Of a DNA stretch of 64,000 nt, positions 38,215 through 52,449 are shown piece after piece. Position 1 is the stretch's first letter. Each line of letters starts with the position of its first letter. Made by a program: the position numbers and the translations under genes. The notes under the pieces are model-generated. The model saw only the letters and a list, made by a program, of their open reading frames with translations, made no database searches and was not told where the DNA came from. Source of the DNA: Luteolibacter flavescens (lineage in GTDB: Bacteria > Verrucomicrobiota > Verrucomicrobiia > Verrucomicrobiales > Akkermansiaceae); assembly GCF_025950085.1 (NCBI RefSeq), contig NZ_JAPDDS010000017.1, forward strand, positions 56,223 through 120,222. The letters are read 5' to 3'.

Positions 38215-41200
38215 TCACTTGAGCGCGTAGGAGACGCGGGCGAAGAATTTGGTCTTCACCATGGGTTCGGGCAAGGACCAGCGGGTCATGCGGTAGTCGA
38301 GGCCGAGGTCTTCGCTGGAGAGCATCACTTCGCCGGTGGCGTCGTCCCAGACGAAGAGGTCGTCGCTGACCTCGATGTCGAAGCCGACGTCGGTGGTGCT
38401 GCGGCGGGTGATGAGTTCGAGCTCGATGCCCTCTGCATTTCGACCGAGGAAGCGGGTGCCGCCGGATTCTCCGAGGAAGTAGGCGGCGAGCGCTGGTGCG
38501 CCATCGATCTCGTCCTCCGGCAGCAGCGATTGCAGGCCGCGGTCGCGCTTCCAGGCGTCGAAGCCCGCGGGGATCACTGAGATTTCCGCCGCTCGGACCA
38601 CATTCGTACCGGTGGTGGTGGTGAGGGCGGTGAAACGGAACCAGCGGGTCTTCAGCTCAGGGAAGCGGACTTCCTGCTGCACGGGGTTGTTCGTAATGTT
38701 GCCGAAGTCGCCCTCGGACCGCACCGTCCACTCGACGCCATCGTCGCTGGTCTCGAAACGATAGCCGAGCACCGTGCCCGCCCCGCCGCCGGAGGGAGGC
38801 AGGTAGGTGAAGCCACTGATCCAGCGGGCGTCGCCCATGTCCACGCGGTGCCAGTGCGGCAGCGCCGTGGCGGTGGAGGTCCATGACGTGGTCGCATTTC
38901 CGTCGATCGCCGACGATGCTGCGCCAGAGGTCTCCTGGCTGTCCGCCGTGGCCGTCCAGCCGACCGAGGCGAGCCCGGGGAAATTCGCGGACGCTTCCAA
39001 GCTGGGGAGCCCGTCGGTGCCGACGGCGATGGCCTTGATCACACCGCCCAGCGGCAGCGGCACAGGGCCGGAGTAGAGCGGGGAATCCAGCAGCGGCGTG
39101 CTGCCATCCAGCGTGTAGCGGATCGGCCGACCCGACGCGTGGGTGAGGGTCACGGAACCGGATGCATTCCGCGCGGAAATGAGCGGCGCGGCGGTGGCCA
39201 CGGCCTGCTTGTGCAGGGACACTTCCGCCAGCGAGGGATTCAGTCGACACGTGGTGATGCGGATGCGCACCCGCGTGGTATTCACCGCGGAGGTGAAGCG
39301 CACCAGACGCTTGTGACCCACGGTGGTGCCGGTCGCCCGCTGGATCCAGGCGGTGCCGGTCCACGTGTCGACCGCGAAGCCTTCGATGCGCTGGCCGCGC
39401 ACGGCGATTGGCTCCTGCAGGCTGACCACGTCGATGCTCTTCGCGGCAGGCAGGTCGATGATGATTTCCTGCGCGCCGGTGCCTGCCGGGGATTCCCAAT
39501 AGGAATCGAGGTCACTGTCGAGAATGCTGGCCGCATTCGTGCCGGTCGCCGTCACCGTGCCGCCGCTGGCAAGATCGGTAGAAAAGGTATTGCGGATCAC
39601 CTGCGCCATCGAGCGCAGCGGCGTGAGCTGGTTATCCGGCACCAGGCCGCGATTGTCCGGGGAGAGATTCAGCAGCAGGTTCGCATTCCGCCCCACGCTG
39701 CGGTAGTGGATGTCGATGAGTTCGGTGGCGGATTTCGGCGTCTTCGAGGCATTCCAGAACCAGCCGTTGAGGATCGGCACGTCGGCCTCGGCGGGATACC
39801 ACCAGAGGTAGGAGCCCGACGAGAGCTTGCTGCGGCTGCCCAGGTCGGTGGCGGTCATGTCCGGCCAATTGAAGCTGTCCGGATGGGCGGAGATGGGCAG
39901 CGTGCTCCACTCCGTCTCGCGCGCGGTGCCGTCTTCATTCCCCACCCAGCGGACGTCGGGCCCCTTTCCAAAGATCACCGCCTCGGGCTGCAGCTTCCGG
40001 ATCAGGTCATACCACGCGGCATGCTGGTAGCCCTGGCTGGTGCCGGGCTTGGGATTGGCCCCGTCGAACCACACCTCGGAGATCGGTCCGTATTCCGTGA
40101 GAAGTTCGTAGAGCTGGTTCAGGAAGTAGCGGTTGTAGGAGTCCACCGTGTAGGTCCACGGGCCGTGGCCGTCCACGGGAGTGCGGCCGGTCGTGGGTGA
40201 GGATGTGAAGGAAGCCGGCGCGGTGGGGATCACCGATGGCACGGAACTACTATTGTCACCGTAGTATCCGGCGGCCGACTCGATCTGGAAAAGGTCCGCG
40301 GGCGAGAGATACACGCCCAGCTTCACGCCGCGCGCCTCGCAGGCATCCGCCACCTCGCGCAGCACGTCCCCCTGCCCGCCGCGCCATGGCGACGAGGCCA
40401 CGTCGTGAGCGGTGTAGCGGCTCGGCCACATGCAAAAGCCGTCGTGGTGCTTCACCACCAGGATCGCGAGCTTCCCGCCCGCATCCGCGATTTCATTCAC
40501 CCATTGCGCCGCATTCAGCGCCGTGGGATTGAAGATCGCCGGACTCTCCTTGCCGGTGCCCCATTCCACGCCGCTGAAGGTATTCGGGCCGAAGTGGATG
40601 AAGAAGGTCGTCTCCAGCCGTTGCCACGCCACCTGGTTGGCGCGCGGCAGCAGCTTCGCAGCCTTTTCCGCCACGCGCGCCGCATTGTCCGAGGGCATGA
40701 TCTGCTGCACATTTGCGTACTCGATGGGTTCCACCACCGGCGGCCAGCCGTCCGGCTCGCCATCGCCATTCGCGTCGGCGAAGTCCCCGATGAGCACGTA
40801 GCCGGAGATTGCGGGATCGGGGTCGTCGGAGAGATTGCCGTCCTGCTGATTGCTGCGGATCGAGATCGACTGCGTGTCCGCATCCGCCACGAAAGTGCCC
40901 ACCACCGTGCCGAAGCCGCCCACAGCGGCGGCACCACGCGTCAGCACGGGCAGCGTGCCGCCGCTGAAGAGCGTCCCGCGCGCCAGCTCATACTCGCGGC
41001 GGTTGATCGAGGAACTGGTGCGATTGTCGTGCGCGCCGATGATCTGGATCTGGTACGGTCGTCCGGGGATGAGGCCGGTGAGGGTGAAGGTTTTCGTCTG
41101 GACGCCCCATGGCTCGCCGAATGCCGTGTGCCCGGAAAGCAGTGCATCGATCTGTGCATTCAGGCCGCTGCCACTCCAGTAGTCCGTGTCCCCCGCGGCG

Positions 41201-41475
41201 GAGGAGAAGCTCACGCCATTCACGCTCACTCCGGGGTAGCCGTAGTTCACCGCCGAGACGATGGCCGTCACGCCGGTCGAGGATCGCCCGCCATTCCTTG
41301 AGGAATCAAAGTCCGCGAGCACGGTCGCCGGATCATTGCCGATATTGAAGGCCGTCCCCCAGTTGATGGTGGATGCACTTGAGAGGAGGGGAAGCATGAC
41401 GCCCAGCGGAGTCAGGTGGCGGAGAAATCCGTTCATTTCGGGCAGGTGGTACTGAATTCGCTTTACGGGTGGCAT
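38215..41475 (-). CDS. secreted GH29 alpha-L-fucosidase with discoidin-like modules
   Basis: A protein of about 1086 residues. After the signal peptide comes an N-terminal domain of about 220 residues (STINWGTAFNIGNDP, then SSAAGDTDYWSG) found in secreted Verrucomicrobiota proteins. A GH29 catalytic domain follows from about 280-610: FFIHFGPNTFSGVEWG, VVKHHDGFCMWPS with substrate-contacting histidines, and EVWFDGAN containing the likely nucleophile Asp. Two discoidin/F5-8-like modules follow (about 630-780 and 830-960) and a C-terminal domain. It releases fucose from host or algal glycans. The start at 41475 is favoured by GGAAAG upstream; 41436 is the alternative with a tidier signal peptide. 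Probably exported and surface-associated. Confidence 0.88.
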   Translation of the reverse strand: MPPVKRIQYHLPEMNGFLRHLTPLGVMLPLLSSASTINWGTAFNIGNDPATVLADFDSSRNGGRSSTGVTAIVSAVNYGYPGVSVNGVSFSSAAGDTDYWSGSGLNAQIDALLSGHTAFGEPWGVQTKTFTLTGLIPGRPYQIQIIGAHDNRTSSSINRREYELARGTLFSGGTLPVLTRGAAAVGGFGTVVGTFVADADTQSISIRSNQQDGNLSDDPDPAISGYVLIGDFADANGDGEPDGWPPVVEPIEYANVQQIMPSDNAARVAEKAAKLLPRANQVAWQRLETTFFIHFGPNTFSGVEWGTGKESPAIFNPTALNAAQWVNEIADAGGKLAILVVKHHDGFCMWPSRYTAHDVASSPWRGGQGDVLREVADACEARGVKLGVYLSPADLFQIESAAGYYGDNSSSVPSVIPTAPASFTSSPTTGRTPVDGHGPWTYTVDSYNRYFLNQLYELLTEYGPISEVWFDGANPKPGTSQGYQHAAWYDLIRKLQPEAVIFGKGPDVRWVGNEDGTARETEWSTLPISAHPDSFNWPDMTATDLGSRSKLSSGSYLWWYPAEADVPILNGWFWNASKTPKSATELIDIHYRSVGRNANLLLNLSPDNRGLVPDNQLTPLRSMAQVIRNTFSTDLASGGTVTATGTNAASILDSDLDSYWESPAGTGAQEIIIDLPAAKSIDVVSLQEPIAVRGQRIEGFAVDTWTGTAWIQRATGTTVGHKRLVRFTSAVNTTRVRIRITTCRLNPSLAEVSLHKQAVATAAPLISARNASGSVTLTHASGRPIRYTLDGSTPLLDSPLYSGPVPLPLGGVIKAIAVGTDGLPSLEASANFPGLASVGWTATADSQETSGAASSAIDGNATTSWTSTATALPHWHRVDMGDARWISGFTYLPPSGGGAGTVLGYRFETSDDGVEWTVRSEGDFGNITNNPVQQEVRFPELKTRWFRFTALTTTTGTNVVRAAEISVIPAGFDAWKRDRGLQSLLPEDEIDGAPALAAYFLGESGGTRFLGRNAEGIELELITRRSTTDVGFDIEVSDDLFVWDDATGEVMLSSEDLGLDYRMTRWSLPEPMVKTKFFARVSYALK

Positions 41476-41702: not shown

Positions 41703-43457
41703 ATGACCGTAGCCACCCCGACCCATTCCAGCCGCCGCCTGATCGTGACGAGAGCCGCCCTGCTCGCGGCAGCCCTGACCTTCCAAAGCAACGGCGAGTC
41801 GATCTCCTACAATTTCTCGGAGACCAGCACCAACACCACCCAGACGCTGGATACCACCACGCCGAAGGGACCACTCGGCAGTCTCGTGTGGAACGACTCC
41901 TACGTCGTGACCACCGGCAACGTGGCCACTGGCACGGAGGACGGACTGGTGGACGGCAGCGGCGGCGCGACCGGAGCCTCGATCTCGTGGACCTCGAAAA
42001 ACACCTGGTACGGCGACGGCGTCTATAACACCCAGGACCAGCGCATCGTGCTCGGCTACCTGGACGACGGGGATGACGGCGTGACCGTGACGGTGACGAA
42101 TATCCCCTACGAGAACTACAATGTTTACGGGATCCTCGCGTCCGATGCCGGGTCGAATACGACCTACACCACCAAGGACTTCCTGATCAATGGCACCACC
42201 TGGGCGCTGGGCGGCAGCGCACCGGCCACGGCGACCGCCTTTGCCAGCATGGAGGCCAGTTCCGCGAACGGTGCTTGGGTGAAGATCATCCCGGGCACCC
42301 AGACCGGGAACTACTGGAAGATCAGCAACCTGACTTCCGGCACGCTGACCATCGACGGCGAGCCGGGTGTCAACAACGGCAACCGTGCGAGCCTCGCCGC
42401 GATCATCATCGAGGACAATACCGACACCGACAATGACGGGATGATCGACAGTTGGGAGATCAACAACAACCTCATCGTCGGCTATGACGACAGCCAGGAA
42501 GACGCGGACGGCGACGGCGTCACGAACATCCGGGAATTCCAGCTCGGGCTGAACCCGCAAAATCCGGACACCGACTTCGACGGCCTGGATGACGGAGTGG
42601 AGCTCAGCGAGGCCTACGGCACGAACCCGCTGGTGGCGGACACCGATGGCGACGGCTCGCCCGATGGCGAGGACACCGCCCCGCTGGACCCGCACATCCG
42701 CCCGGGCACGAGCACCATCACCTGGACCACCGAGGGCGAACTCACCTCGGACGCAGCGATTTCCATGACCGGCACGCTCGCGCAGGCATGGGTCTTCGGC
42801 TCGGCAGGCGTGGACGTCACGATCGGCAGCACCACGATCAACTTCGCGAGTGTCAGCGGGAATACCGGGACCTTCTTCACTGCCAACGGCGACACCACGG
42901 GCAACGCCTCGCTGGACAATCTGCTGAACAACCACGCGGCGAGCGAAGGCATCGCCTGGCAGTACATGCTCACCGGCCTGACTCCCGGCGCTACCTACCA
43001 GGTGCAGGTCATTGCCGGAGCCGACCGCCGCGCGGGCATCTCCACCCGCACGCAAAAGATCGGCGACGGCGTCGGTCACTTCACCGGAAACCTTGCGCGC
43101 TCCGGCCCGGGCTACGCCATCGGCACCTTCACCGCCAGCGCCGAGGCCACGCAGATCATCAGTGTCGTGCCCGGTGACATCAACCCGGTCGATCCGGCGA
43201 TCACCGCCATCATCCTGCGCGAGGTGGACCTCAGCACGCTGGCGCTCACGTCGTCCACCTTCAGCCCCACCCAGATCACCCTCACCTGGATCTCCGAGGC
43301 GGGCATGACCTACGACGTCGAATACTCGGACACCCTCACGGCGGGCTCCTGGCAAAACGTGAATGCCTCGCCCATCCCCGCGACCGGCCTGTCCACGAGC
43401 TACACCTTCCCCCGCCCCGCAGGCACGAAGCGCTTCTTCCGCGTCAGTGAAAACTGA
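41703..43457 (+). CDS. secreted surface protein with thrombospondin type 3 repeats
   Basis: A 584-residue exported protein with signal peptide (IVTRAALLAAALTFQ). Its N-terminal domain of about 205 residues is closely related to the next gene product. A thrombospondin type 3 calcium-binding block follows at about 239-326 (DTDNDGMIDSW, DADGDGVTN, DTDFDGLDDG and DTDGDGSPDGED). A second domain (about 345-500) contains GLTPGATYQVQVIAGADRR, and the end is a FNIII-like stretch (LTWISEAGMTYDVEYSDT) with no PEP-CTERM tail. Probably displayed at the cell surface; ligand unknown. Confidence 0.82.
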   Translation: MTVATPTHSSRRLIVTRAALLAAALTFQSNGESISYNFSETSTNTTQTLDTTTPKGPLGSLVWNDSYVVTTGNVATGTEDGLVDGSGGATGASISWTSKNTWYGDGVYNTQDQRIVLGYLDDGDDGVTVTVTNIPYENYNVYGILASDAGSNTTYTTKDFLINGTTWALGGSAPATATAFASMEASSANGAWVKIIPGTQTGNYWKISNLTSGTLTIDGEPGVNNGNRASLAAIIIEDNTDTDNDGMIDSWEINNNLIVGYDDSQEDADGDGVTNIREFQLGLNPQNPDTDFDGLDDGVELSEAYGTNPLVADTDGDGSPDGEDTAPLDPHIRPGTSTITWTTEGELTSDAAISMTGTLAQAWVFGSAGVDVTIGSTTINFASVSGNTGTFFTANGDTTGNASLDNLLNNHAASEGIAWQYMLTGLTPGATYQVQVIAGADRRAGISTRTQKIGDGVGHFTGNLARSGPGYAIGTFTASAEATQIISVVPGDINPVDPAITAIILREVDLSTLALTSSTFSPTQITLTWISEAGMTYDVEYSDTLTAGSWQNVNASPIPATGLSTSYTFPRPAGTKRFFRVSEN

Positions 43458-43510
43458 TCCCACCCCTCTGTCCCATCGCCTCCCCGAACCAATAAAACCG
43501 CAAACCTGAA

Positions 43511-44314
43511 ATGACCCCCGTATTCCGCTCCCTCCGGACCGACAGACTCTGCCTCGCCGCGCTTGCCGCGGGCGCATGGCTCGCCGGCACTCCCGCTGCC
43601 GACGCCGCGTCGGTGGCCTACAACTTCAGCGAGACCAACTCGAATCCCTCGCAGTCGCTCGACACCACCACTCCGAAGGGCCCGCTCGGCTCCTCCATCT
43701 GGAATGACTCCTACGTCACCACCACCGGCGGTGTGGCGACGGGCACCGAGACGAACCTCGTGGACAACACCGGCGCGAACACCGGCATGTCCATCTCATG
43801 GACCTCGAAGGAAACGTGGTTCGGCGATGGCGGCGGCACCACGCAGGACCAGCGCATCGTGCTCGGCTACCTCGATGACGGCGACCAGGGCGGGGCGAAT
43901 CCAGGAGTCTTCGTCACCCTCTCGAACATTTCCTACAGCCTGTATAACGTGTATCTGATCCTCGCCTCGGATGCGGGAACGAACACGACCTACACCTCGC
44001 AGGACTTCCTGCTGAATGGCAGCACGTGGATCTTCGGCGGGGCCTCGGCGACGACCGCGACGGCCTTTGCCAGCATGGAGTCCACCTCGGCCAATGGCAC
44101 GTGGACCCGCGCGATCGCCGGGGTGCAGACCGGGAACTACGCGCTGGCCACGAACCTGAGCGGCAGCACGCTGACCATCGACGGCCTCATCGGTGCGGGC
44201 GGTGCCCGCGGCAGCCTCGCGGGCATCATCATCGAGCAAGTGCCGGAGCCCTCCGCAGCGCTGCTCGCCGCGGCAGGTGGCATGCTGCTTTTCCGTCGCC
44301 GGAGAAACGACTGA
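43511..44314 (+). CDS. PEP-CTERM sorted surface protein
   Basis: A 267-residue exported protein. An N-terminal domain (about 32-245) is homologous to that of the preceding gene, sharing LDTTTPKGPLGS, QRIVLGYLDDGD, ATAFASME and TLTIDG. The C-terminal tail (VPEPSAALLAAAGGMLLFRRRR) is a textbook PEP-CTERM signal: PEP, hydrophobic helix, Arg cluster, which is processed by an exosortase. It is exported and anchored in the exopolysaccharide or surface layer of bacteria with this system. The stop lies 16 bases before the halogenase gene. Confidence 0.9.
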   Translation: MTPVFRSLRTDRLCLAALAAGAWLAGTPAADAASVAYNFSETNSNPSQSLDTTTPKGPLGSSIWNDSYVTTTGGVATGTETNLVDNTGANTGMSISWTSKETWFGDGGGTTQDQRIVLGYLDDGDQGGANPGVFVTLSNISYSLYNVYLILASDAGTNTTYTSQDFLLNGSTWIFGGASATTATAFASMESTSANGTWTRAIAGVQTGNYALATNLSGSTLTIDGLIGAGGARGSLAGIIIEQVPEPSAALLAAAGGMLLFRRRRND

Positions 44315-44330
44315 CCCGCCCTCACCCCTC

Positions 44331-45884
44331 ATGTCCACGTCCATGATCCGGTCCGTGCTCGTGCTTGGCGGTGGCAGCGCCGGGCTGCTAGCCGCCCTCA
44401 CCCTGAAGCGCAAGCTACCCGCGCTGCAGGTGGAGGTCGTCGCGAGCTCGCGGATCGGCGTCATCGGCGTGGGCGAGGGTACTACGCCCAACGTACCTGC
44501 GCACCTGAATGGCTATCTGGGCATCCCCGAGCGGGAAACACAGGCGGCGCTCGATCCGGTATTCAAGCTGGGCGTGCGCTTCGCCTGGGGCCGCCGGGAT
44601 CACTTCGACTACACTTTCACCGGCCGCCAGTTCGCCTGGCGCTGGCCGGAGCTGCCAAAGACGAATGGCTTCTACGCCACGGAGGAGCCCGTTGGCACCG
44701 ACCTCGCCTCCGCGCTGATGGAGGCTGGCAAGGCCGCACCGCGCCGCGCCGACCGCTACCCGGAGCTGCCGCCGATGGGCACGCAGATCGCCTGGCATCT
44801 GGAGAACCGCTCCTTCGTCGCGTGGCTCGAGTCCGCTTGCCAGCGCGAGGGTGTCACCTTCCGCGATGCCGAGTTGGCCGAGGCCGTGCGTGATGCCGAA
44901 GGAGGAATCGCCGAGCTGGTCTTCAAGGATGGCACGCGCACCTCCGCGGATCTCTATGTGGATTCGTCGGGCTTCGGCTCGCTGCTGTTAGGCGGCGCGC
45001 TCGGTGAATCCTTCACGTCATTCTCCGGCCAGCTCTTCTGCGATCGCGCGGTGGCCGGCGGCTGGGATCGCGGCGACGAGACCATCCTTCCCTACACGCT
45101 TTCTGAGACCATGCCCGCCGGGTGGGCATGGCGCATCGATCACCCGGAGCGCATCCATCGCGGCTATGTCTTCTGCTCGGATCATCTCTCCGATGACGAG
45201 GCCGTGGCGCAATACTCGCAGGTGGCGCCGCTGGCGAAGAATCCGAAGATCGTGAAATTCCGCTCCGGCCATTACCGGAATCCGTGGGCTCACAACGTGG
45301 TCGCCATCGGCAATGCAGCGGGGTTCGTCGAGCCGCTTGAGGCCACCGCCCTCATGGTGATCTGCCTGCAGGCGCGCTGGCTCACCGACGGGCTCATCGA
45401 CTCCGGCTGCAAGCCGCCGCCGACGATGCGTGCCCACTACTGCCGCATGAACCGCACGCTGTGGGAAACGATCCGCGATTTCCTCGCCATCCACTACCGC
45501 TTCAATGACCGGCTTGAGACGGATTTCTGGCTGCGCTGCCGCCGCGAGACGGATCTCGGCAGCGCGGCGGAGCTGGTGGATTTCTATCGCGAGAATGGCG
45601 CGTCCGGCATCGGTGCCTCGCTGCTCGGCGCGCAGGACCCCTTCGGTCTCGATAGCTATCTGGCGCTTCTAACAGGCCTGCGTGCGCCCTGCGAGGTCAC
45701 CCACACATCTAGCCCAGCGGAGCTTGCCGCATGGTCCGAGCGAAAGGCGGCCTTCCGCAAGATCGCCGCGGGCGGCCTCGGCATGCGCGAGGTGCGGCAG
45801 CGGCTGGCCGAGCCATCCGGCTGGGCACGCGTCCGCGGCACCCAGCCCGCATCCCCTTCGCCCAAGGCAGCAAAGGTCTTCTGA
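44331..45884 (+). CDS. flavin-dependent tryptophan halogenase-like enzyme
   Basis: A 517-residue flavoprotein of the tryptophan halogenase superfamily. The FAD dinucleotide loop is VLGGGSAGLLAAL at residues 10-22, and GVGEGTTPNVPAHL (about 46) is the second family hallmark. FKLGVRFAWG (near 82) includes the Lys expected to carry HOCl/chloramine chemistry. A PAGWAWRI segment near 264 corresponds to the WxWxIP-type motif that blocks monooxygenation, with His in place of Pro at the end. GNAAGFVEPLEATAL near 328 is the FAD-binding loop. The substrate may be tryptophan, a peptide or another aromatic. It sits between secreted surface proteins. Confidence 0.85.
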   Translation: MSTSMIRSVLVLGGGSAGLLAALTLKRKLPALQVEVVASSRIGVIGVGEGTTPNVPAHLNGYLGIPERETQAALDPVFKLGVRFAWGRRDHFDYTFTGRQFAWRWPELPKTNGFYATEEPVGTDLASALMEAGKAAPRRADRYPELPPMGTQIAWHLENRSFVAWLESACQREGVTFRDAELAEAVRDAEGGIAELVFKDGTRTSADLYVDSSGFGSLLLGGALGESFTSFSGQLFCDRAVAGGWDRGDETILPYTLSETMPAGWAWRIDHPERIHRGYVFCSDHLSDDEAVAQYSQVAPLAKNPKIVKFRSGHYRNPWAHNVVAIGNAAGFVEPLEATALMVICLQARWLTDGLIDSGCKPPPTMRAHYCRMNRTLWETIRDFLAIHYRFNDRLETDFWLRCRRETDLGSAAELVDFYRENGASGIGASLLGAQDPFGLDSYLALLTGLRAPCEVTHTSSPAELAAWSERKAAFRKIAAGGLGMREVRQRLAEPSGWARVRGTQPASPSPKAAKVF

Positions 45885-45935
45885 AAAGCCCGGGCTGCGG
45901 CCCATCCCACTTCCCCATCGTCACGAACCAGCGAA

Positions 45936-48900
45936 ATGAAGAAACGAACACTATCACGCGCCGGACTTCGCGAGCGCGGCTTCGCCTTGGTCATCTCGAT
46001 CATGCTGATGGTCCTGCTCACGGTCCTCGCCGTCGGCCTGCTCGGCCTGTCATCGATCTCGATGCGATCTTCCACCCAGGAGGAGGCGCTGCGACTCGCA
46101 CGCAGCAATGCCCGCGTCGCGCTCTCGCTCGCCATCGCCCAGCTCCAGAAGCAGGCCGGCCCGGACCAGCGCATCACCGCGCCCGCGACGATCACCAACG
46201 TGAAGAATCCCCGCGGCGTGACCGGCGTCTGGAAGTCCTGGCGCCCGCCCCAGGAGAATCCCGACTACGCGAAGGAGAAGGCCGAGCGCTTCACCGAATA
46301 CCTGATCTCCACTCCCACGCCGGGGAAGACCGATGACATCGCCAGCGTGCCGACCTCCGACGAGGAGCAGGTGATGGTCGGCGCGGGCAGCCTCGGCGGC
46401 GGCTCGGTTTCATCCACCGCCCTCACCACGGATGAGACGACGAACGAGATCATGGCCCCCGTGGTTCCGGTCGCCGCGGAGAATGGCAAGTCCACCACCG
46501 GCGCGCTCGCCTGGGCCACGCTCGACGAGGGAGTGAAGGGCCGCATCGACCTCGCTCCCGCGGAAGACCCGAAGGACTCCGTCGCCGATGCCGTCTCCCG
46601 CATGGGCTCGCCCGCGCGGAACAAGGCCGGCAGCCTGGATGGACTCGCCTTCCTCGACGATGCGCGCGAGAACCTGCTGGAAAAGCTCCCGAAGCTGGTG
46701 AGCACCGCCGAGGTGAATCTCGCGGGCGGCGACAAGGAAGTCTTCGGCCGCTACTTCCATGACTTCAGCGTCGCATCGAATTCCGTGCAAGCGGACGTGG
46801 CGAATGGCGGGCTGAAGACCGACCTGAGCGTTATCTTCGACGGTGCCACCCTGCCGACCGAGTATGCGACCCGGCGCCTCTACTCGAACTCGGCGGTCCC
46901 GGCCACTGGCACGAACAACTCCGACCCGATGTGGGCGGCCTACCAGCACTACTACCGCCTCTATCAGAAGGCGGTGGCGAAGGACAATCCGAAGGACGGG
47001 ATGAAGGCCTTCGTCCCCACGACCTACCGCCTCGCCCAATCGAGCGACACCACCATCAAGGACGTCCGCATCGAGCCGAATCTCTCCACCGTCCGCCAGT
47101 CCATCCTGATGCCCACGGTGGCCAAGGTGGACATCGTCTTCAGCATCGTGGCGCGGGACGTGCACTCCAGCCGCACCACCGCGCTGCTCCAGGCCGGCTA
47201 CCCCTACATGATCCATCTCATGTACCTGCCGGTGATCACGCTGCACAATCCCTACAACGTGCCTCTGCGCTTCACGGAGATGGAGGTGGAATTCGCGGAC
47301 CTGCCGATGGGCTTCCAGTTCTTCGTGAATGGCCAGGCCGCGACGAACGAGATGAAGCCCTTCAACTCGCTCTACACCGGCAACGAGTCGGGCGGTGCGA
47401 AAAAGGTCTTCAAGGTCACGCTGACCGGCGACCTGAAGGCCGCGAAGGAAGTGGTGATGGGTGCGGGCGAGACGCGCATCTTCGGCAAGCCCTTCCCTCC
47501 CGAGTGGACCTGGGCGCAGGAAAATGCCGGCGGTGCGCAGGACGGCGTGGACATGTTCGACTGGCGGAACGACCGCACCCAGCTCGGCAACCGCATCATG
47601 CCCGGCATGATCACCGGGCCGAATGACGGCATCGGCTACGACCTCGACTGGCTCGCGCCGCTGGTGACGACGCGCGCCGAGTGGCACAAGGCCCGCACCG
47701 CCGAGGGCGTGCTGCCCGTGAAGCCCGGCGAGTCGATCATGGTGAAGTATGGTCCGAAGACCCAGCCGAGTTCGCCGAACAACAAGTTCGCCATGACGCT
47801 GCGGCTGAAGAATGGCACGGCGCCCGTGGACTACGGCACCACGCAGGTCTATTTCCAGAACGAGGGCAAGCTGAAGACCGTGCTGGAGGAAGGGACCTCG
47901 CCGCGCTTCACCGAGGCACGCAGTTTCCCCGAGAGCTATCCGAAGCCCGGGGTGGAAGCCCCGATCACCGCGTCCTCGATCTACGAGTCCAATAGTACCA
48001 AGATCCGCGACTACAGCAAGGCGCGGCCCTTCGCGGTCTTCAGCCTTAGCGGAAAGACCACGCAGGAGGCCTTCACCCGCTCGCGACCCGCGGCGGATAC
48101 CGGTGCCGCCCCGCAGATGGCGACCTGCGAATTCATCAGCACGGCCAGCCAGGGGACGAATCCCTATGAGTTCATCCTCACACCCGTGCGCGGTGGCAAT
48201 GCCGTGATCGAGTCCGAGGGTGAGAAGGGCTACTTCTTCGGCGGCCACGGAGCGACCCGCGGCACCACCGCCGCGACCTTCTTCGAGATCCCGATGGCCC
48301 CGCTGCAATCGCTGGCCCAGCTCCGCCACGCGAACGTGGGCACGATGGCTGCGGCACCTTACTTCACCTACGCCACCGGTGAATCCCGCGCGCATCCGGC
48401 ACTGCCCGCGAAGTCCCCGCGCTTCGCCGTCGCGACGAACCGCACCATCCTCGACCACTCGTGGCTGTCGAATGACCAACTCTGGGACCGCTACTGGTTC
48501 TCGACCATCGCCACGCTGCAGGGCCCCGCCTACGCCGGCAGCTCCGCGAAGACCCAGACGGAGCTGGCGAAAAGCTTCTTCAATGGCGAGGGCACGCTGC
48601 CCAATGTCCGGAACATGGCGATCGTCCCCACCGGCTCGCTGCCGGACGATGTCGCGACCACGGCCATCGAGGCGGGCGGCCAGAAGTCCGCGATGTATCT
48701 GCTCACCCGCGGCGGCTTCAATGTGAACAGCACCTCGGAGGCCGCCTGGGTCTCCGTGCTCTCCGCGATGGCGGACTCCCCGGTCCCGCTTGCCACCGGT
48801 ATGCTGGAAAGCACCGGCGACTCCGTCCCGCTGCTGCGCACCCGCCGCCCGAGCACGGGCCTCGACGGAGGCGTGGTGGGCCGCGACCAACTGTGGAACA

Positions 48901-49457
48901 GCTACCGCAAGCTGACTCCTGAGGAAGTCCGCTCGCTGGCGAAGGAGATGGTGAAGCAGGTCCGCCAGCGCGGCCCCTTCCTCTCCATGTCCGACTTCGT
49001 GAACCGCCGCCTGGCGGAGGATGACACCGGAAAGGCCGGTGCCATGCAGGCGGCCATCGACGCCAGCGGCATCAATGAGGTGATGGTGCCGAATGCGATG
49101 CCCATCGATCCCGCCGAGGTCACGAAATACGGATGGAGGAATCCGAAGGCGCTCGAGGGCAGCAACACCGCGGCGGGTTCTCCCGGCGCGATCAGCCAAG
49201 GCGACGTGCTCTCCGCCATCGGGTCCTTCGCCACCGTGCGGTCGGATACCTTCCGCATCCGCGCCTATGGCGAGGCTCGCGATCCGCAGGGCAAGGTGCT
49301 CGCCCGCGCGTGGTGCGAGGCCACCCTGCAGCGTCTGCCCGACTACGTGGACCCCTCGGAGTCGCCTGAAATCATCGCGACCAAGGAAGCCAACGTCACC
49401 TTTGGCAGACGCTTCGAGACCTTGGCATTCCGCTGGCTTCACCCCGAGGAAGTTTGA
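45936..49457 (+). CDS. large pilin-like protein resembling Verru_Chthon cassette protein A
   Basis: An 1173-residue protein with an N-terminal prepilin-like signal: basic MKKRTLSRAGLRERGFALVIS and a hydrophobic helix at about 16-36 with a G-F cleavage-type site and further hydrophobic residues. The remainder is a large soluble domain without known catalytic motifs (for example NVRNMAIVPTGS, TGLDGGVVGRDQLWNSYRKL, then FLSMSDFVNRRLAEDD), which resembles PilX-like helical parts. Length and N-terminus fit the Verru_Chthon cassette protein A family, from memory. No cassette B, C or D follow. It would be assembled or exported by a type IV pilus/type II-like machine. Confidence 0.75.
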   Translation: MKKRTLSRAGLRERGFALVISIMLMVLLTVLAVGLLGLSSISMRSSTQEEALRLARSNARVALSLAIAQLQKQAGPDQRITAPATITNVKNPRGVTGVWKSWRPPQENPDYAKEKAERFTEYLISTPTPGKTDDIASVPTSDEEQVMVGAGSLGGGSVSSTALTTDETTNEIMAPVVPVAAENGKSTTGALAWATLDEGVKGRIDLAPAEDPKDSVADAVSRMGSPARNKAGSLDGLAFLDDARENLLEKLPKLVSTAEVNLAGGDKEVFGRYFHDFSVASNSVQADVANGGLKTDLSVIFDGATLPTEYATRRLYSNSAVPATGTNNSDPMWAAYQHYYRLYQKAVAKDNPKDGMKAFVPTTYRLAQSSDTTIKDVRIEPNLSTVRQSILMPTVAKVDIVFSIVARDVHSSRTTALLQAGYPYMIHLMYLPVITLHNPYNVPLRFTEMEVEFADLPMGFQFFVNGQAATNEMKPFNSLYTGNESGGAKKVFKVTLTGDLKAAKEVVMGAGETRIFGKPFPPEWTWAQENAGGAQDGVDMFDWRNDRTQLGNRIMPGMITGPNDGIGYDLDWLAPLVTTRAEWHKARTAEGVLPVKPGESIMVKYGPKTQPSSPNNKFAMTLRLKNGTAPVDYGTTQVYFQNEGKLKTVLEEGTSPRFTEARSFPESYPKPGVEAPITASSIYESNSTKIRDYSKARPFAVFSLSGKTTQEAFTRSRPAADTGAAPQMATCEFISTASQGTNPYEFILTPVRGGNAVIESEGEKGYFFGGHGATRGTTAATFFEIPMAPLQSLAQLRHANVGTMAAAPYFTYATGESRAHPALPAKSPRFAVATNRTILDHSWLSNDQLWDRYWFSTIATLQGPAYAGSSAKTQTELAKSFFNGEGTLPNVRNMAIVPTGSLPDDVATTAIEAGGQKSAMYLLTRGGFNVNSTSEAAWVSVLSAMADSPVPLATGMLESTGDSVPLLRTRRPSTGLDGGVVGRDQLWNSYRKLTPEEVRSLAKEMVKQVRQRGPFLSMSDFVNRRLAEDDTGKAGAMQAAIDASGINEVMVPNAMPIDPAEVTKYGWRNPKALEGSNTAAGSPGAISQGDVLSAIGSFATVRSDTFRIRAYGEARDPQGKVLARAWCEATLQRLPDYVDPSESPEIIATKEANVTFGRRFETLAFRWLHPEEV

Positions 49458-49459
49458 TC

Positions 49460-50173
49460 ATGAAAATCCACACGATTCCCCTGCTCGCGCTCGCCGCATG
49501 CGTCCTCCCCTCGTCCGCGCTGCATGCCCAGGAGGCACGCACCGTGCGCTTCCGCACCCTGTGCCTGGAGCAGACCGCAGGCGTCACGAGCGTGCATCTG
49601 CCCGCGGCGAAGTCGGGTGCCGATGCCGTGGAGGTGCCGCTCTACACGGGCTCCCTCTCCCCGGAAATCGTGGGAAACTTCACGGGCAAGGAAGCGGTTT
49701 TCACCGGGGCACCGGGAGCGGATGGCAAGCCGGCCGTCATGGCCAAGGTCGCGCTCGCCAGCTCATCCCGGCAGTTCTTCCTCTTCCTGCCCGCGAAGTC
49801 CGGCGGCGCGAAGCCCTACGAGGTGATGGCCTTTGACGACGACACGGACAGCTTCAAGCCGGGGCACATCCGGTCCATCAATCTCGCGCCCGTGCCCGTG
49901 CGCTTCACCATCGCGGGCAAGGCATCCCCGCCCGTGCCGCCTTCGAAGCAGATGATCTTCCCGCAGGCGGCGAAGAAGGACGACTACAACATGTATCCCG
50001 TGGTGGTGGACTTCGCCAGCGCGGGCGACAAGTGGTTCAAGGGCTACTCGGCGAGCTGGAAGGCCAGCGATACGCGACGGGAAATCGTGATCACGCTGAT
50101 CGATCCGAAATTCAAGCAACCGGTAGTGAAGTGCTATCCGGACCTCCCGCCGTGGCTCGCCGCCACCCCGTGA
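49460..50173 (+). CDS. secreted hypothetical protein (237 aa)
   Basis: A protein with signal peptide (IPLLALAACVLPSSALHA) and mature sequence ARTVRFRTLCLEQTAGVTSV. The rest is beta-rich with no motif recognised. It begins 2 bases after the pilin-like gene stop, so it is coupled to it and may be an export or structural partner. An alternative TTG lies 6 bases earlier. Confidence 0.7.
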   Translation: MKIHTIPLLALAACVLPSSALHAQEARTVRFRTLCLEQTAGVTSVHLPAAKSGADAVEVPLYTGSLSPEIVGNFTGKEAVFTGAPGADGKPAVMAKVALASSSRQFFLFLPAKSGGAKPYEVMAFDDDTDSFKPGHIRSINLAPVPVRFTIAGKASPPVPPSKQMIFPQAAKKDDYNMYPVVVDFASAGDKWFKGYSASWKASDTRREIVITLIDPKFKQPVVKCYPDLPPWLAATP

Positions 50174-50185
50174 AGGGCCCTGCCC

Positions 50186-51961
50186 TTACTGGCCCGCGGG
50201 CGGCAGGCTGAAGTCGCCGCCCATCACGCGGCGGACCTGATCTTCTGTTAGAACGAGATTGAAGACGGCAAGATCCGACAGCAGTCCCTCGAAGTGATTG
50301 CCATGGGCGGGCGGGGCCTCGCCCCGTCCGAAGTACCAGCTTTCCGACGGCCAGTCGAAATTGAAGGCGGGCGCGGTATTGAGATCCTGATCCTGCACAC
50401 CGGTCGGCTCGCCATTCACGTAGAAGCGGATCTGTCTCATGGAGGTCCCGTCGAAGAACACGGAAAACGCCACGTGGACCCACTTGTCCACCGGCAACCC
50501 GACGGACGACTGCTCCTCACTGATGCCGAAGGAGTCGAAGGTGGGATACAGGCCCGGAGACGATCTCGATGGCCCGCCATCCGGACCATGCTGCGCGGTC
50601 AGGCTCAGCTCACGCTCTCCGAAGACCCGGAAGACTCCATTCCCCATGTGGGCACTGGCCGCGCTCCAAGTCTGGTTGTAGTCCCCGCGCAGCAGCAGGC
50701 CGCCGCCGTCCGCGGTCGCAGGTAGCTTCAGCCACATGGCCACGGTCAAAGGTCCCGTGGTCCAGTCGCTCAGCGCCGCGGGCAGGATGAGGATGTCATT
50801 CACGCCGTCAAAGGACAGGCACGGCCCGCGCTCGGGATCGGTAACCCACGAGGCCCCGTTGATGCGACCGTGATGACCGTGGCCGCTCCAGTCGTCCACG
50901 ATATCCCCGCTTCCCACACGCATGCGCCACAGCGCGCCGAGTCGTGGATCCGGTGTCAGCGGGCGGAAGGCGGGCTGCTTCGGATACGGTGTGATGCCGG
51001 TGACGGCAAGTGGAGCGAGCGCTAGCAGGAAGACAAGCACGAGCGAGACCACGGTCAGAGGATTCGGCAACGAGCGCCGCTTGTCCGACCGGAGCACGGC
51101 CAGCAGGCGGCTGCGGACCTCGCGGAGATGGCGGCGGCTCAGGCGGCCTCCTTTCGCCTCGTTCACGAGCACCTCCCCGTATTTCGAGGCAGGTACACCG
51201 CCGGCGATGACCGCGTCATCGCACGCCATCTCCACTGCACGGTCGTATTGCCGCAGCAGCAGGTGGACGAGCGGGTGGAACCAAAAGACGATCGCCGCGA
51301 GCTCCAGCGCGGCACGCAGCGGCACATCGTGCCCGTGCAGGTGCTCCATCTCATGGCGCAGGATCATCTCCTGCGAGGCCTCGTCGCGCGCGAGGAATTC
51401 CGAGGAAACCAACAGCCGCGGGTGCAGCAACCCGTGCACCACCGGCCCGGGCAGGGTCTCCACTTCAAACATCCACGGACGCCGTCGCATTCCCTCCGTC
51501 AGCTTTTCTAACAGCCGCGCCGCAGGATGATCCGGATGAACGGGCTTCGCCTTCGCGAAACGCACCAGGCTGGAGCAGTACTGCGCGCCGCGGAAGAGCA
51601 GGAAAAGGAATGCCCCGGCCGCCCAGACCTGCACGATGAGGCCCGGCAGCGGATCCCGGTTTGCCCCCGGGATGGACCCGGCCACCGGCATCGAGGAAAC
51701 CGCGGACACTCGCAACTCGCCCGGCACCTCGGGTGCGAAAGCACGCGTCGAGGCCAGCGCGGGGATCGTGATGCGGAAGACCATCGGCAACGCCGGAGCC
51801 GCGAGCCCCGCCAGCAGCCCCACGGCCAACAACACGCAGACGATGCGGGATGCGGAGCGCCGCGACACATACGCGAGCGCCAGCACGAGCGGGAGCACCA
51901 GGCAAAACCGGAGGGAAGCGACAAGGAGCCAGCGGTAAAGCTCCCCGGTCATTTCCTCCAT
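50186..51961 (-). CDS. BlaR1/M56-type membrane metalloprotease with C-terminal LamG-like domain
   Basis: A 591-residue membrane sensor-protease. Hydrophobic helices lie at about 9-30, 35-62 and 106-123, then an M56 zinc protease active site HEMEHLHGHD near residue 204 and a downstream ACDDAVIAGG. A further helix sits near 305-320. The C-terminal 230 residues form a LamG/concanavalin-like domain (GHGHHGRINGASWV, LSFDGVND, LTVAMWLKLP, WVHVAFSVF, GEPTGVQDQD, LSDLAVFN) where classical BlaR1 has a penicillin-binding sensor. The partner BlaI-like repressor is encoded upstream at 52027-52449. A laminin-G type domain could sense a polysaccharide or polymer at the outside. The start at 51961 is the first ATG; a TTG lies 12 bases earlier. 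Confidence 0.85.
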   Translation of the reverse strand: MEEMTGELYRWLLVASLRFCLVLPLVLALAYVSRRSASRIVCVLLAVGLLAGLAAPALPMVFRITIPALASTRAFAPEVPGELRVSAVSSMPVAGSIPGANRDPLPGLIVQVWAAGAFLFLLFRGAQYCSSLVRFAKAKPVHPDHPAARLLEKLTEGMRRRPWMFEVETLPGPVVHGLLHPRLLVSSEFLARDEASQEMILRHEMEHLHGHDVPLRAALELAAIVFWFHPLVHLLLRQYDRAVEMACDDAVIAGGVPASKYGEVLVNEAKGGRLSRRHLREVRSRLLAVLRSDKRRSLPNPLTVVSLVLVFLLALAPLAVTGITPYPKQPAFRPLTPDPRLGALWRMRVGSGDIVDDWSGHGHHGRINGASWVTDPERGPCLSFDGVNDILILPAALSDWTTGPLTVAMWLKLPATADGGGLLLRGDYNQTWSAASAHMGNGVFRVFGERELSLTAQHGPDGGPSRSSPGLYPTFDSFGISEEQSSVGLPVDKWVHVAFSVFFDGTSMRQIRFYVNGEPTGVQDQDLNTAPAFNFDWPSESWYFGRGEAPPAHGNHFEGLLSDLAVFNLVLTEDQVRRVMGGDFSLPPAGQ

Positions 51962-52026
51962 GATCCGAGACAAGCAGCTATCGCCGGGCCGCCCAGCACA
52001 ATGTCAGGCGGGATGTAAAATTAGGC

Positions 52027-52449
52027 TCAGCCCTTCGCTGCGTCCTCTTCCTTCTTCGGCGAGTCGGCCCGTTGGAGGATCTCCTCCAGCATGCGCCGGT
52101 CCTCCGGAGCCAGGGTTCCTTTTTCCCGCTTCAGGAAGGATGCGAGGCCGAAGGACAGCGAGCCATTGAAGAAACTCCCCACCGTGCGCTTCAGCATCTC
52201 GAATCCCACCTCGGAGGAATTCATCACCGGCAGGTAGAGGTAGCGGTTGCCATCCTTCCGCATCGCGAGGAAGCCCTTGTCATGGAGAATGCCAAGGATC
52301 CGCCGTGCCCCCGAATTCGTCATCGTGGTCTCCAGATTCTCGCACAGCGAGTCTGCGGACACCTCACCCAGGCGATGCACCACGTACATCACTTCCCGCT
52401 CGCGGCGGCTGAGGTTTTCAAATTCCAGGGTCTTGCGCTTTGATGACAT
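52027..52449 (-). CDS. BlaI/MecI-family transcriptional repressor
   Basis: A 140-residue winged-helix protein in the penicillinase repressor family: LEFENLSRREREVMYVVHRLGEVSADSL at the N-terminus and RRILGILHDKGFLAMRKDGNRYLYLPVM as recognition helix and wing. The C-terminal part (FLKREKGTLAPEDRRMLEEILQ) is the helical dimerisation tail. It probably represses its own operon and is inactivated by the downstream M56 protease, as in the BlaR1-BlaI system. The gap to the M56 gene is 65 bases. The start at 52449 gives MSSKRKTLEF. Confidence 0.85.
   Translation of the reverse strand: MSSKRKTLEFENLSRREREVMYVVHRLGEVSADSLCENLETTMTNSGARRILGILHDKGFLAMRKDGNRYLYLPVMNSSEVGFEMLKRTVGSFFNGSLSFGLASFLKREKGTLAPEDRRMLEEILQRADSPKKEEDAAKG

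What the first reader, a model, noticed from the sequence alone, without database searches (positions are those of the whole stretch)
41703..50173. Five-gene run joining PEP-CTERM-type surface proteins, a flavin-dependent halogenase and a pilin-like giant
Five plus-strand genes with gaps of 53, 16, 51 and 2 bases encode two related secreted proteins, a tryptophan-halogenase-like enzyme, an 1173-residue prepilin-like protein and a small secreted protein. Halogenases are usually known from small-molecule clusters. Here there is no NRPS/PKS or flavin reductase next to it, only surface proteins. One hypothesis is halogenation of aromatic residues of a surface protein or of a peptide bound to it; another is a small-molecule halogenase with its partners elsewhere.
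Basis: partly seen in the sequence, partly recalled or inferred. Interest (0 to 1): 0.7.

Follow-up and report, generated by a model that had tools for sequence, protein, structure and literature searches.

The report
Halogenase paired with bacterial surface proteins
In this verrucomicrobial bacterium a halogenase-like enzyme gene sits right beside genes for predicted surface proteins, and the same kind of pair recurs in related species, so the enzyme likely adds chlorine or bromine to the surface protein itself, which would be a new way for bacteria to modify their surface, though no chemistry has been tested.

Summary
In detail: five plus-strand genes with gaps of 53, 16, 51 and 2 bases. They are two modules. 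D-E (prepilin-like giant plus small secreted protein) is a separate cassette: in 16 fetched loci of relatives 18 of 20 D-type genes are followed by E, and no halogenase was found there. A-B-C is the real find. The halogenase clade that holds C (11 loci, 8 genomes, three genera) has a frame with B's domain next to it in 10 of 11, against 1 of 37 other relatives. One further close relative, found later, has a giant repeat protein there. Other halogenases sit beside giant repeat proteins without B's domain. C's closest solved relative is MibH, which chlorinates tryptophan within a peptide (PMC12615548, PMC8269204). Lysine 79 and glutamate 337 are kept in all 48 intact enzymes compared, but WxWxIP reads WxWxI(D/E) in all 48. 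Best reading: C modifies an aromatic residue of its neighbour before export. Substrate and halogenation itself are untested; nitroreductase and SnoaL-like genes beside some relatives keep a small-molecule substrate open. No report of such a pairing came up in the searches run.

The parts
41703..43457 (+). A: predicted secreted protein, 584 aa; N-terminal domain shared with B (about 41790-42419), TSP3-like stretch, C-terminal domain ending KRFFRVSEN
43511..44314 (+). B: 267 aa, signal peptide by eye, malectin-like beta domain (predicted), PEP-CTERM-type tail
44240..44311 (+). PEP-CTERM-type sorting tail of B
44331..45884 (+). C: flavin-dependent halogenase-like enzyme, PF04820, 517 aa; its hydrophobic N-terminus is the FAD-binding strand and helix, no export signal recognised by eye
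44367..44384 (+). GxGxxG of the FAD site of C (residues 13-18)
44565..44567 (+). codon of lysine 79 (catalytic lysine by alignment with MibH; the PrnA lysine was aligned with a clade-2 relative)
45123..45140 (+). WAWRID, residues 265-270, in place of the WxWxIP motif
45339..45341 (+). codon of glutamate 337 (FVEPLEATA)
45936..49457 (+). D: 1173 aa, prepilin-like N-terminus, one of many such paralogs in the genome; separate module
49460..50173 (+). E: 237 aa predicted secreted protein, usual follower of D-type genes

Best explanation
Gene C encodes a MibH-like flavin enzyme that sits in a recurring pair with a B-type surface protein, and it likely halogenates an aromatic residue, most probably a tryptophan, of that neighbouring protein before the protein is exported. 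Shown by sequence and calls: the pairing in related genomes, the conserved lysine 79 and glutamate 337, the PEP-CTERM-type tail of B, two exosortase genes and one PF01613 flavin reductase gene elsewhere in the genome; the fold is a confident prediction. Inferred: C works in the cytoplasm with FADH2 from a general reductase, makes HOX at the flavin, relays it through lysine 79 to an aromatic side chain of the still unfolded A or B chain; the chain then leaves by Sec and B is cut and anchored by exosortase. D and E are a separate cassette that happens to lie behind C in this genome.
Against: No experiment. Likeness to MibH is not special to this pair: two clade-2 relatives score it higher (318 and 313 bits). 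WxWxIP is changed in all 48 intact enzymes. In three loci of C's clade (L043, L044, L045) the genes upstream include a 212 aa protein that is a nitroreductase by Pfam in the two scanned, and in L043 and L045 a SnoaL-like protein, which fits small-molecule chemistry. B-domain proteins also occur without a halogenase: 6 of the 14 best matches are unlinked, and G039 has one although the C search found no halogenase there. A partial halogenase related to C (L141) has neither B-domain nor PATR frame near it. PEP-CTERM-type tails as such are not enriched beside halogenases against other genes of the same loci (5 of 92 against 21 of 632, p 0.36). Tryptophans 64, 97 and 103 of the domain are nearly as conserved in unlinked copies, so no target residue stands out. 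The mirror test is weak (r 0.41, Mantel p 0.005, species history not removed). Ten of the 12 stand-alone B relatives lie on contigs whose lengths match none of the 120 listed C relatives; several of those contigs are short.
Confidence: 0.43

Rival explanations
1. C halogenates a small aromatic molecule (an indole, a phenol or a cell-envelope pigment), and the surface proteins are its carriers, binders or sites of deposition rather than its substrate.
Against: The nitroreductase and SnoaL-like genes belong to one group of loci only; the recurrent partner across C's clade is the surface protein. A nitroreductase could as well serve as the flavin reductase.
Confidence: 0.32
2. C is no longer a halogenase but a flavin monooxygenase that hydroxylates a protein-bound aromatic residue, as QhpG does (function of QhpG recalled).
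For: WxWxIP, suggested to keep these enzymes from acting as monooxygenases (PMC5945002, passage), reads WxWxI(D/E) in 48 of 48 intact enzymes. QhpG is the best NCBIfam match (27.9 bits, E 1e-6), far below its cut-off of 240.
Against: Lysine 79 and glutamate 337 of the halogenase site are kept in 48 of 48; overall similarity is to halogenases.
Confidence: 0.13
3. The pairing is a by-product of genome architecture: both genes favour variable surface-protein islands and have no shared biochemistry.
For: These genomes hold many PATR repeats (76 to at least 150 matches each in six genomes) and often several halogenases.
Against: PATR genes are rare in D loci of the same genus (1 of 188), and the partner type follows the halogenase clade: B-domain with C's clade, PATR without B-domain with others.
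Confidence: 0.12

Closest known systems
MibH, NAI-107 lanthipeptide tryptophan 5-halogenase (PDB 5uao)
   Same: Closest solved relative by sequence and structure; same fold, lysine and glutamate; acts on peptide-bound tryptophan (papers, passages)
   Different: Modifies a small cyclised antibiotic peptide after leader removal; MibH keeps WxWxIP (GWCWTIP), C has WAWRID; neighbour here is a surface protein
SrpI and MppI, leader-dependent peptide brominases
   Same: Flavin enzymes acting on ribosomal peptides, guided by a leader (PMC12615548, PMC10858898, passages)
   Different: Act on short core peptides in biosynthetic clusters; their sequences were not compared here
BrvH and Xcc4156
   Same: PF04820-type halogenases listed without the free-tryptophan motif (PMC8269204, passage); BrvH has an open substrate site (PMC5945002, passage)
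   Different: 28% and 26% identity; BrvH acts on indole (papers); gene context not compared here
PrnA, RebH, PyrH
   Same: Same fold; PrnA's lysine and glutamate align with those of a clade-2 relative of C
   Different: Free tryptophan substrate; 25-27% identity; letters YHG absent from C
PEP-CTERM/exosortase surface proteins
   Same: B has a PEP-CTERM-type tail and the genome has two exosortase genes
   Different: Halogenase partner not described in the searches run
Verru_Chthon cassette protein A (TIGR02600)
   Same: D resembles its N-terminus
   Different: 21.5 bits against a cut-off of 332.3

Membership tests
Flavin-dependent tryptophan-halogenase superfamily (PF04820) | profile score above curated cut-off | tested here: met
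   321 bits against 21
Flavin-dependent tryptophan-halogenase superfamily (PF04820) | GxGxxG flavin site | tested here: met
   residues 13-18; glycines kept in 48 of 48 intact enzymes
Flavin-dependent tryptophan-halogenase superfamily (PF04820) | catalytic lysine | tested here: met
   K79, 48 of 48
Flavin-dependent tryptophan-halogenase superfamily (PF04820) | catalytic glutamate (E346 of PrnA) | tested here: met
   E337, 48 of 48
Flavin-dependent halogenases in the strict sense | WxWxIP motif | tested here: not met
   WAWRID in C; aspartate in 20 and glutamate in 28 of 48 intact enzymes. It can be said to work like a halogenase, not that it is one
Free-tryptophan halogenases | YYHG-type motif that holds free tryptophan (PMC8269204) | tested here: not met
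   letters YHG absent from C; of 54 frames one has them, at another place
MibH-type peptide halogenases | closest relationship to MibH | tested here: met
   two other relatives share this; only four solved enzymes were in the tree
MibH-type peptide halogenases | activity on peptide-bound tryptophan | not testable with these tools
   needs an assay
PEP-CTERM proteins (B) | sorting tail above curated cut-off | tested here: inconclusive
   TIGR02595 16.5 against 16; PF07589 17.9 against 20.7
PEP-CTERM proteins (B) | exosortase in the genome | tested here: met
   two genes, 173 and 101 bits
PATR / autotransporter-repeat proteins (A, B) | PATR repeats | tested here: not met
   none found in the window's A or B; present in partners of relatives
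Malectin-like domain (B) | fold | tested here: inconclusive
Verru_Chthon cassette A (D) | TIGR02600 score above cut-off | tested here: not met
   21.5 against 332.3

The most novel reading that the evidence does not exclude
Verrucomicrobiota run a surface-protein halogenation system: several paralogous enzyme-substrate pairs per genome, each a MibH-like enzyme with its own B-domain or giant PATR-repeat surface protein, that write chlorine or bromine into the protein chain before export and so change the chemistry of the cell surface.
Probability: 0.29. Interest if true: 0.87.

Novelty: new variant of a known kind. Interest (0 to 1): 0.63.

Why it matters
Enzymatic protein halogenation in bacteria is known from small antibiotic peptides and other natural products. 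A dedicated enzyme paired with large exported surface proteins would move it into cell-surface biology, help explain why several halogenase genes lie outside obvious biosynthetic clusters in Luteolibacter-type genomes, and give new tools for tagging proteins at tryptophan. It also makes a clear bench test possible, since each enzyme comes with its suspected substrate next door.

Tried and rejected
One operon of five partners: rejected, since D-E is an independent cassette (16 loci of the best D matches fetched; a D gene was recognised in 15, 20 D genes in all, 18 followed by E, no halogenase found in any of the 16). Against this: at L057 the end of a D-like gene and an E-like gene (101 and 53 bits) lie about 6 kb from a halogenase of another clade.

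A target residue from conservation: tried on the B-domain alignment. Tryptophans 64, 97 and 103 are conserved in linked (11 of 12, 12 of 12, 11 of 13 rows) and unlinked copies (23, 18 and 19 of 24). Tryptophan 173 (6 of 13 linked rows) and 198 (9 of 11 linked, 10 of 29 unlinked) are commoner in linked copies, but relatedness explains this as well.

Mirror distances of the two families (9 pairs): weak, not used as support.

The ranking (the ten best B-domain places in 9 genomes all lie in the A-B-C or a halogenase locus) is not used as proof, because the alignment A2 was built from those very copies, made with B alone, is used instead. The B-domain profile was built from 28 regions that include linked copies; L054 was not among them. 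The background of 632 other genes includes 20 regions, most chosen because they held B-domain proteins, so for B-domains the D-locus background (9 of 92 against 0 of 188) is fairer than the other (24 of 632, p 0.03).

Rows left out of counts: the six second copies of tandem halogenases (139-209 bits) were dropped from the 54 found, leaving 48. L140 and L141 hold cut or partial halogenases and were not counted. My gene caller missed short genes in some loci (L047, L054), hence the six-frame check. The count of 23 of 48 was made by hand and uses 1 kb between frames, while the D-gene control uses the next called gene. Tree warning: MibH and PrnA are long branches.

Literature: no paper was found; the hits did not look like a halogenase-surface protein pairing. 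For some searches I saw listings only; I read passages of two of the four papers, one of which mentions earlier halogenases from Verrucomicrobia; I read passages of four papers. No paper was read whole.

Full report
What is there. The five genes are as described. The name of the window's own genus is inferred from this.

Two modules. D is one of many paralogs: 21 matching stretches in this genome and 9 to 25 in each of 17 same-genus genomes (stretches, not genes, and at most 12 candidates per genome were scored). In 16 fetched loci of the best D matches, 15 with a recognised D gene, 18 of 20 D genes are followed by an E-type gene, and no halogenase was found in any of the 16. In one such locus the cassette goes on with a subtilase-like protease and a 263 aa protein. 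So D-E is its own unit, placed behind C here. One fragmentary D-E end lies about 6 kb from a halogenase of another clade (L057).

The halogenase and its partner. C-type enzymes were found in 26 of 57 genomes searched, often several per genome. I fetched 44 regions around halogenases and 16 around D genes and 20 more, most of them chosen for B-domain proteins. In these and the window 54 halogenase frames were found, of which 48 score above 400 bits against C. A maximum-likelihood tree puts C in a clade of 11 rows (100/98) from six Luteolibacter-type genomes, Rubritalea and one more genus. In that clade a frame with B's domain lies directly beside the enzyme in 10 of 11; L047 (54 bits) and L054 (32.8 bits) are weak matches. 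The exception, L045, has a giant PATR protein 1.6 kb away. Among the 37 others only L114, from another family, has a B-domain frame directly beside it (Fisher 1.8e-8). In six loci of Luteolibacter-type relatives the domain is the front end of giant PATR proteins of 1001-1513 aa; in the window, Rubritalea, G028 and L114 it is a short protein with a PEP-CTERM-type tail (the window's A lacks the tail). The partner lies upstream, downstream or on the other strand, and flanking genes differ between groups of loci.

Chance. B-domain proteins are few: searching with B alone gives 0 to 6 matches per genome, in 29 of 57 genomes. Of the 14 best matches outside the window (above 61 bits), 8 lie beside a halogenase (coordinates); 6 do not. 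PATR genes are 22 of 92 neighbours of halogenases but 1 of 188 genes in D loci and 11 of 632 other genes (Fisher 6e-11 and 1e-13). PEP-CTERM-type tails as such are not enriched against other genes of the same loci (5 of 92 against 21 of 632, p 0.36). Of 48 halogenases, 23 have a PATR or B-domain frame within 1 kb (counted by hand), against none of 20 D genes with such a next gene. Related loci are not independent, so these P values overstate the case.

Other clades. Twelve halogenases outside C's clade sit within 1 kb of PATR proteins without B's domain: ten of the 22 rows of one large clade (called clade 2 here), and two elsewhere. Many of the giants in the large clade share an N-terminal stretch TTRASLxATAxxNxRWxAxLLAG. 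Searching with 42 residues of it in 10 genomes gave 19 matches; by coordinates, 12 lie within 10 kb of a halogenase and 7 do not. It is enriched but not exclusive; a role as a recognition leader is a guess. Five rows nested in the same large clade (L050, L063, L064, L068, L070) instead follow two further PF04820/FAD oxidoreductase genes and an ion-exchanger-like gene (L050 scanned; the others by gene size and start).

The partner. B is modelled (pLDDT 79) as a beta sandwich of malectin or carbohydrate-binding type; sequence gives no Pfam domain but the tail. Two exosortase genes stand elsewhere in the genome. That C acts before export is inferred: my crude signal scan flags its N-terminus, but that stretch is the FAD-binding strand and helix of the model, and FADH2 is cytoplasmic (established knowledge).

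Limits. Genes in relatives were called with a script of my own and checked in six frames only for the two domain types. The linkage does not name the substrate. No residue of B is singled out by conservation. No experiment was possible.

Novelty. No paper pairing a halogenase with PEP-CTERM, PATR or other surface proteins came up, mostly seen as listings, in a library that lacks most subscription journals and preprints. The enzyme kind is known; the partner and the likely substrate class are new as far as these searches go.

Noticed in passing
L051, L061, L074, L105, L108, L077 (own genome: G000:C2:277513-280415): Tandem halogenases in six genomes: the second copy (139-209 bits against C) has lost both the lysine and the glutamate (6 of 6 for each on the alignment) and directly follows an intact copy; possibly a non-catalytic partner.
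   Followed up: partly
L050, L063, L064, L068, L070: A halogenase group follows two further PF04820/FAD oxidoreductase genes and an ion-exchanger-like gene (L050 scanned), unlike the surface-protein pairs.
   Followed up: partly
L043:4950-6182, L045:6993-8056, L044:3805-4443: Nitroreductase (PF00881) and SnoaL-like (PF07366) genes upstream of C-clade halogenases in L043 and L045; L044 has a similar 212 aa gene, not scanned.
   Followed up: partly
L049, L056, L058, L059, L060, L069, L042: Giant PATR proteins beside halogenases of the large clade share an N-terminal stretch TTRASLxATAxxNxRWxAxLLAG; 12 of 19 matches in 10 genomes lie within 10 kb of a halogenase.
   Followed up: partly
window 50186-52449: BlaI-like repressor gene followed by an M56 (BlaR1-type) peptidase with a laminin-G-like domain at its far end; no penicillin-binding domain was reported.
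   Followed up: no
window 38215-41436: Large alpha-L-fucosidase-type protein with F5/8 and chitobiase-C domains, divergent to gene A.
   Followed up: no
L104:8098-14631: This D-E cassette continues with an S8 protease near mycosin and QhpE and a 263 aa protein; the window's copy is followed by other genes.
   Followed up: partly
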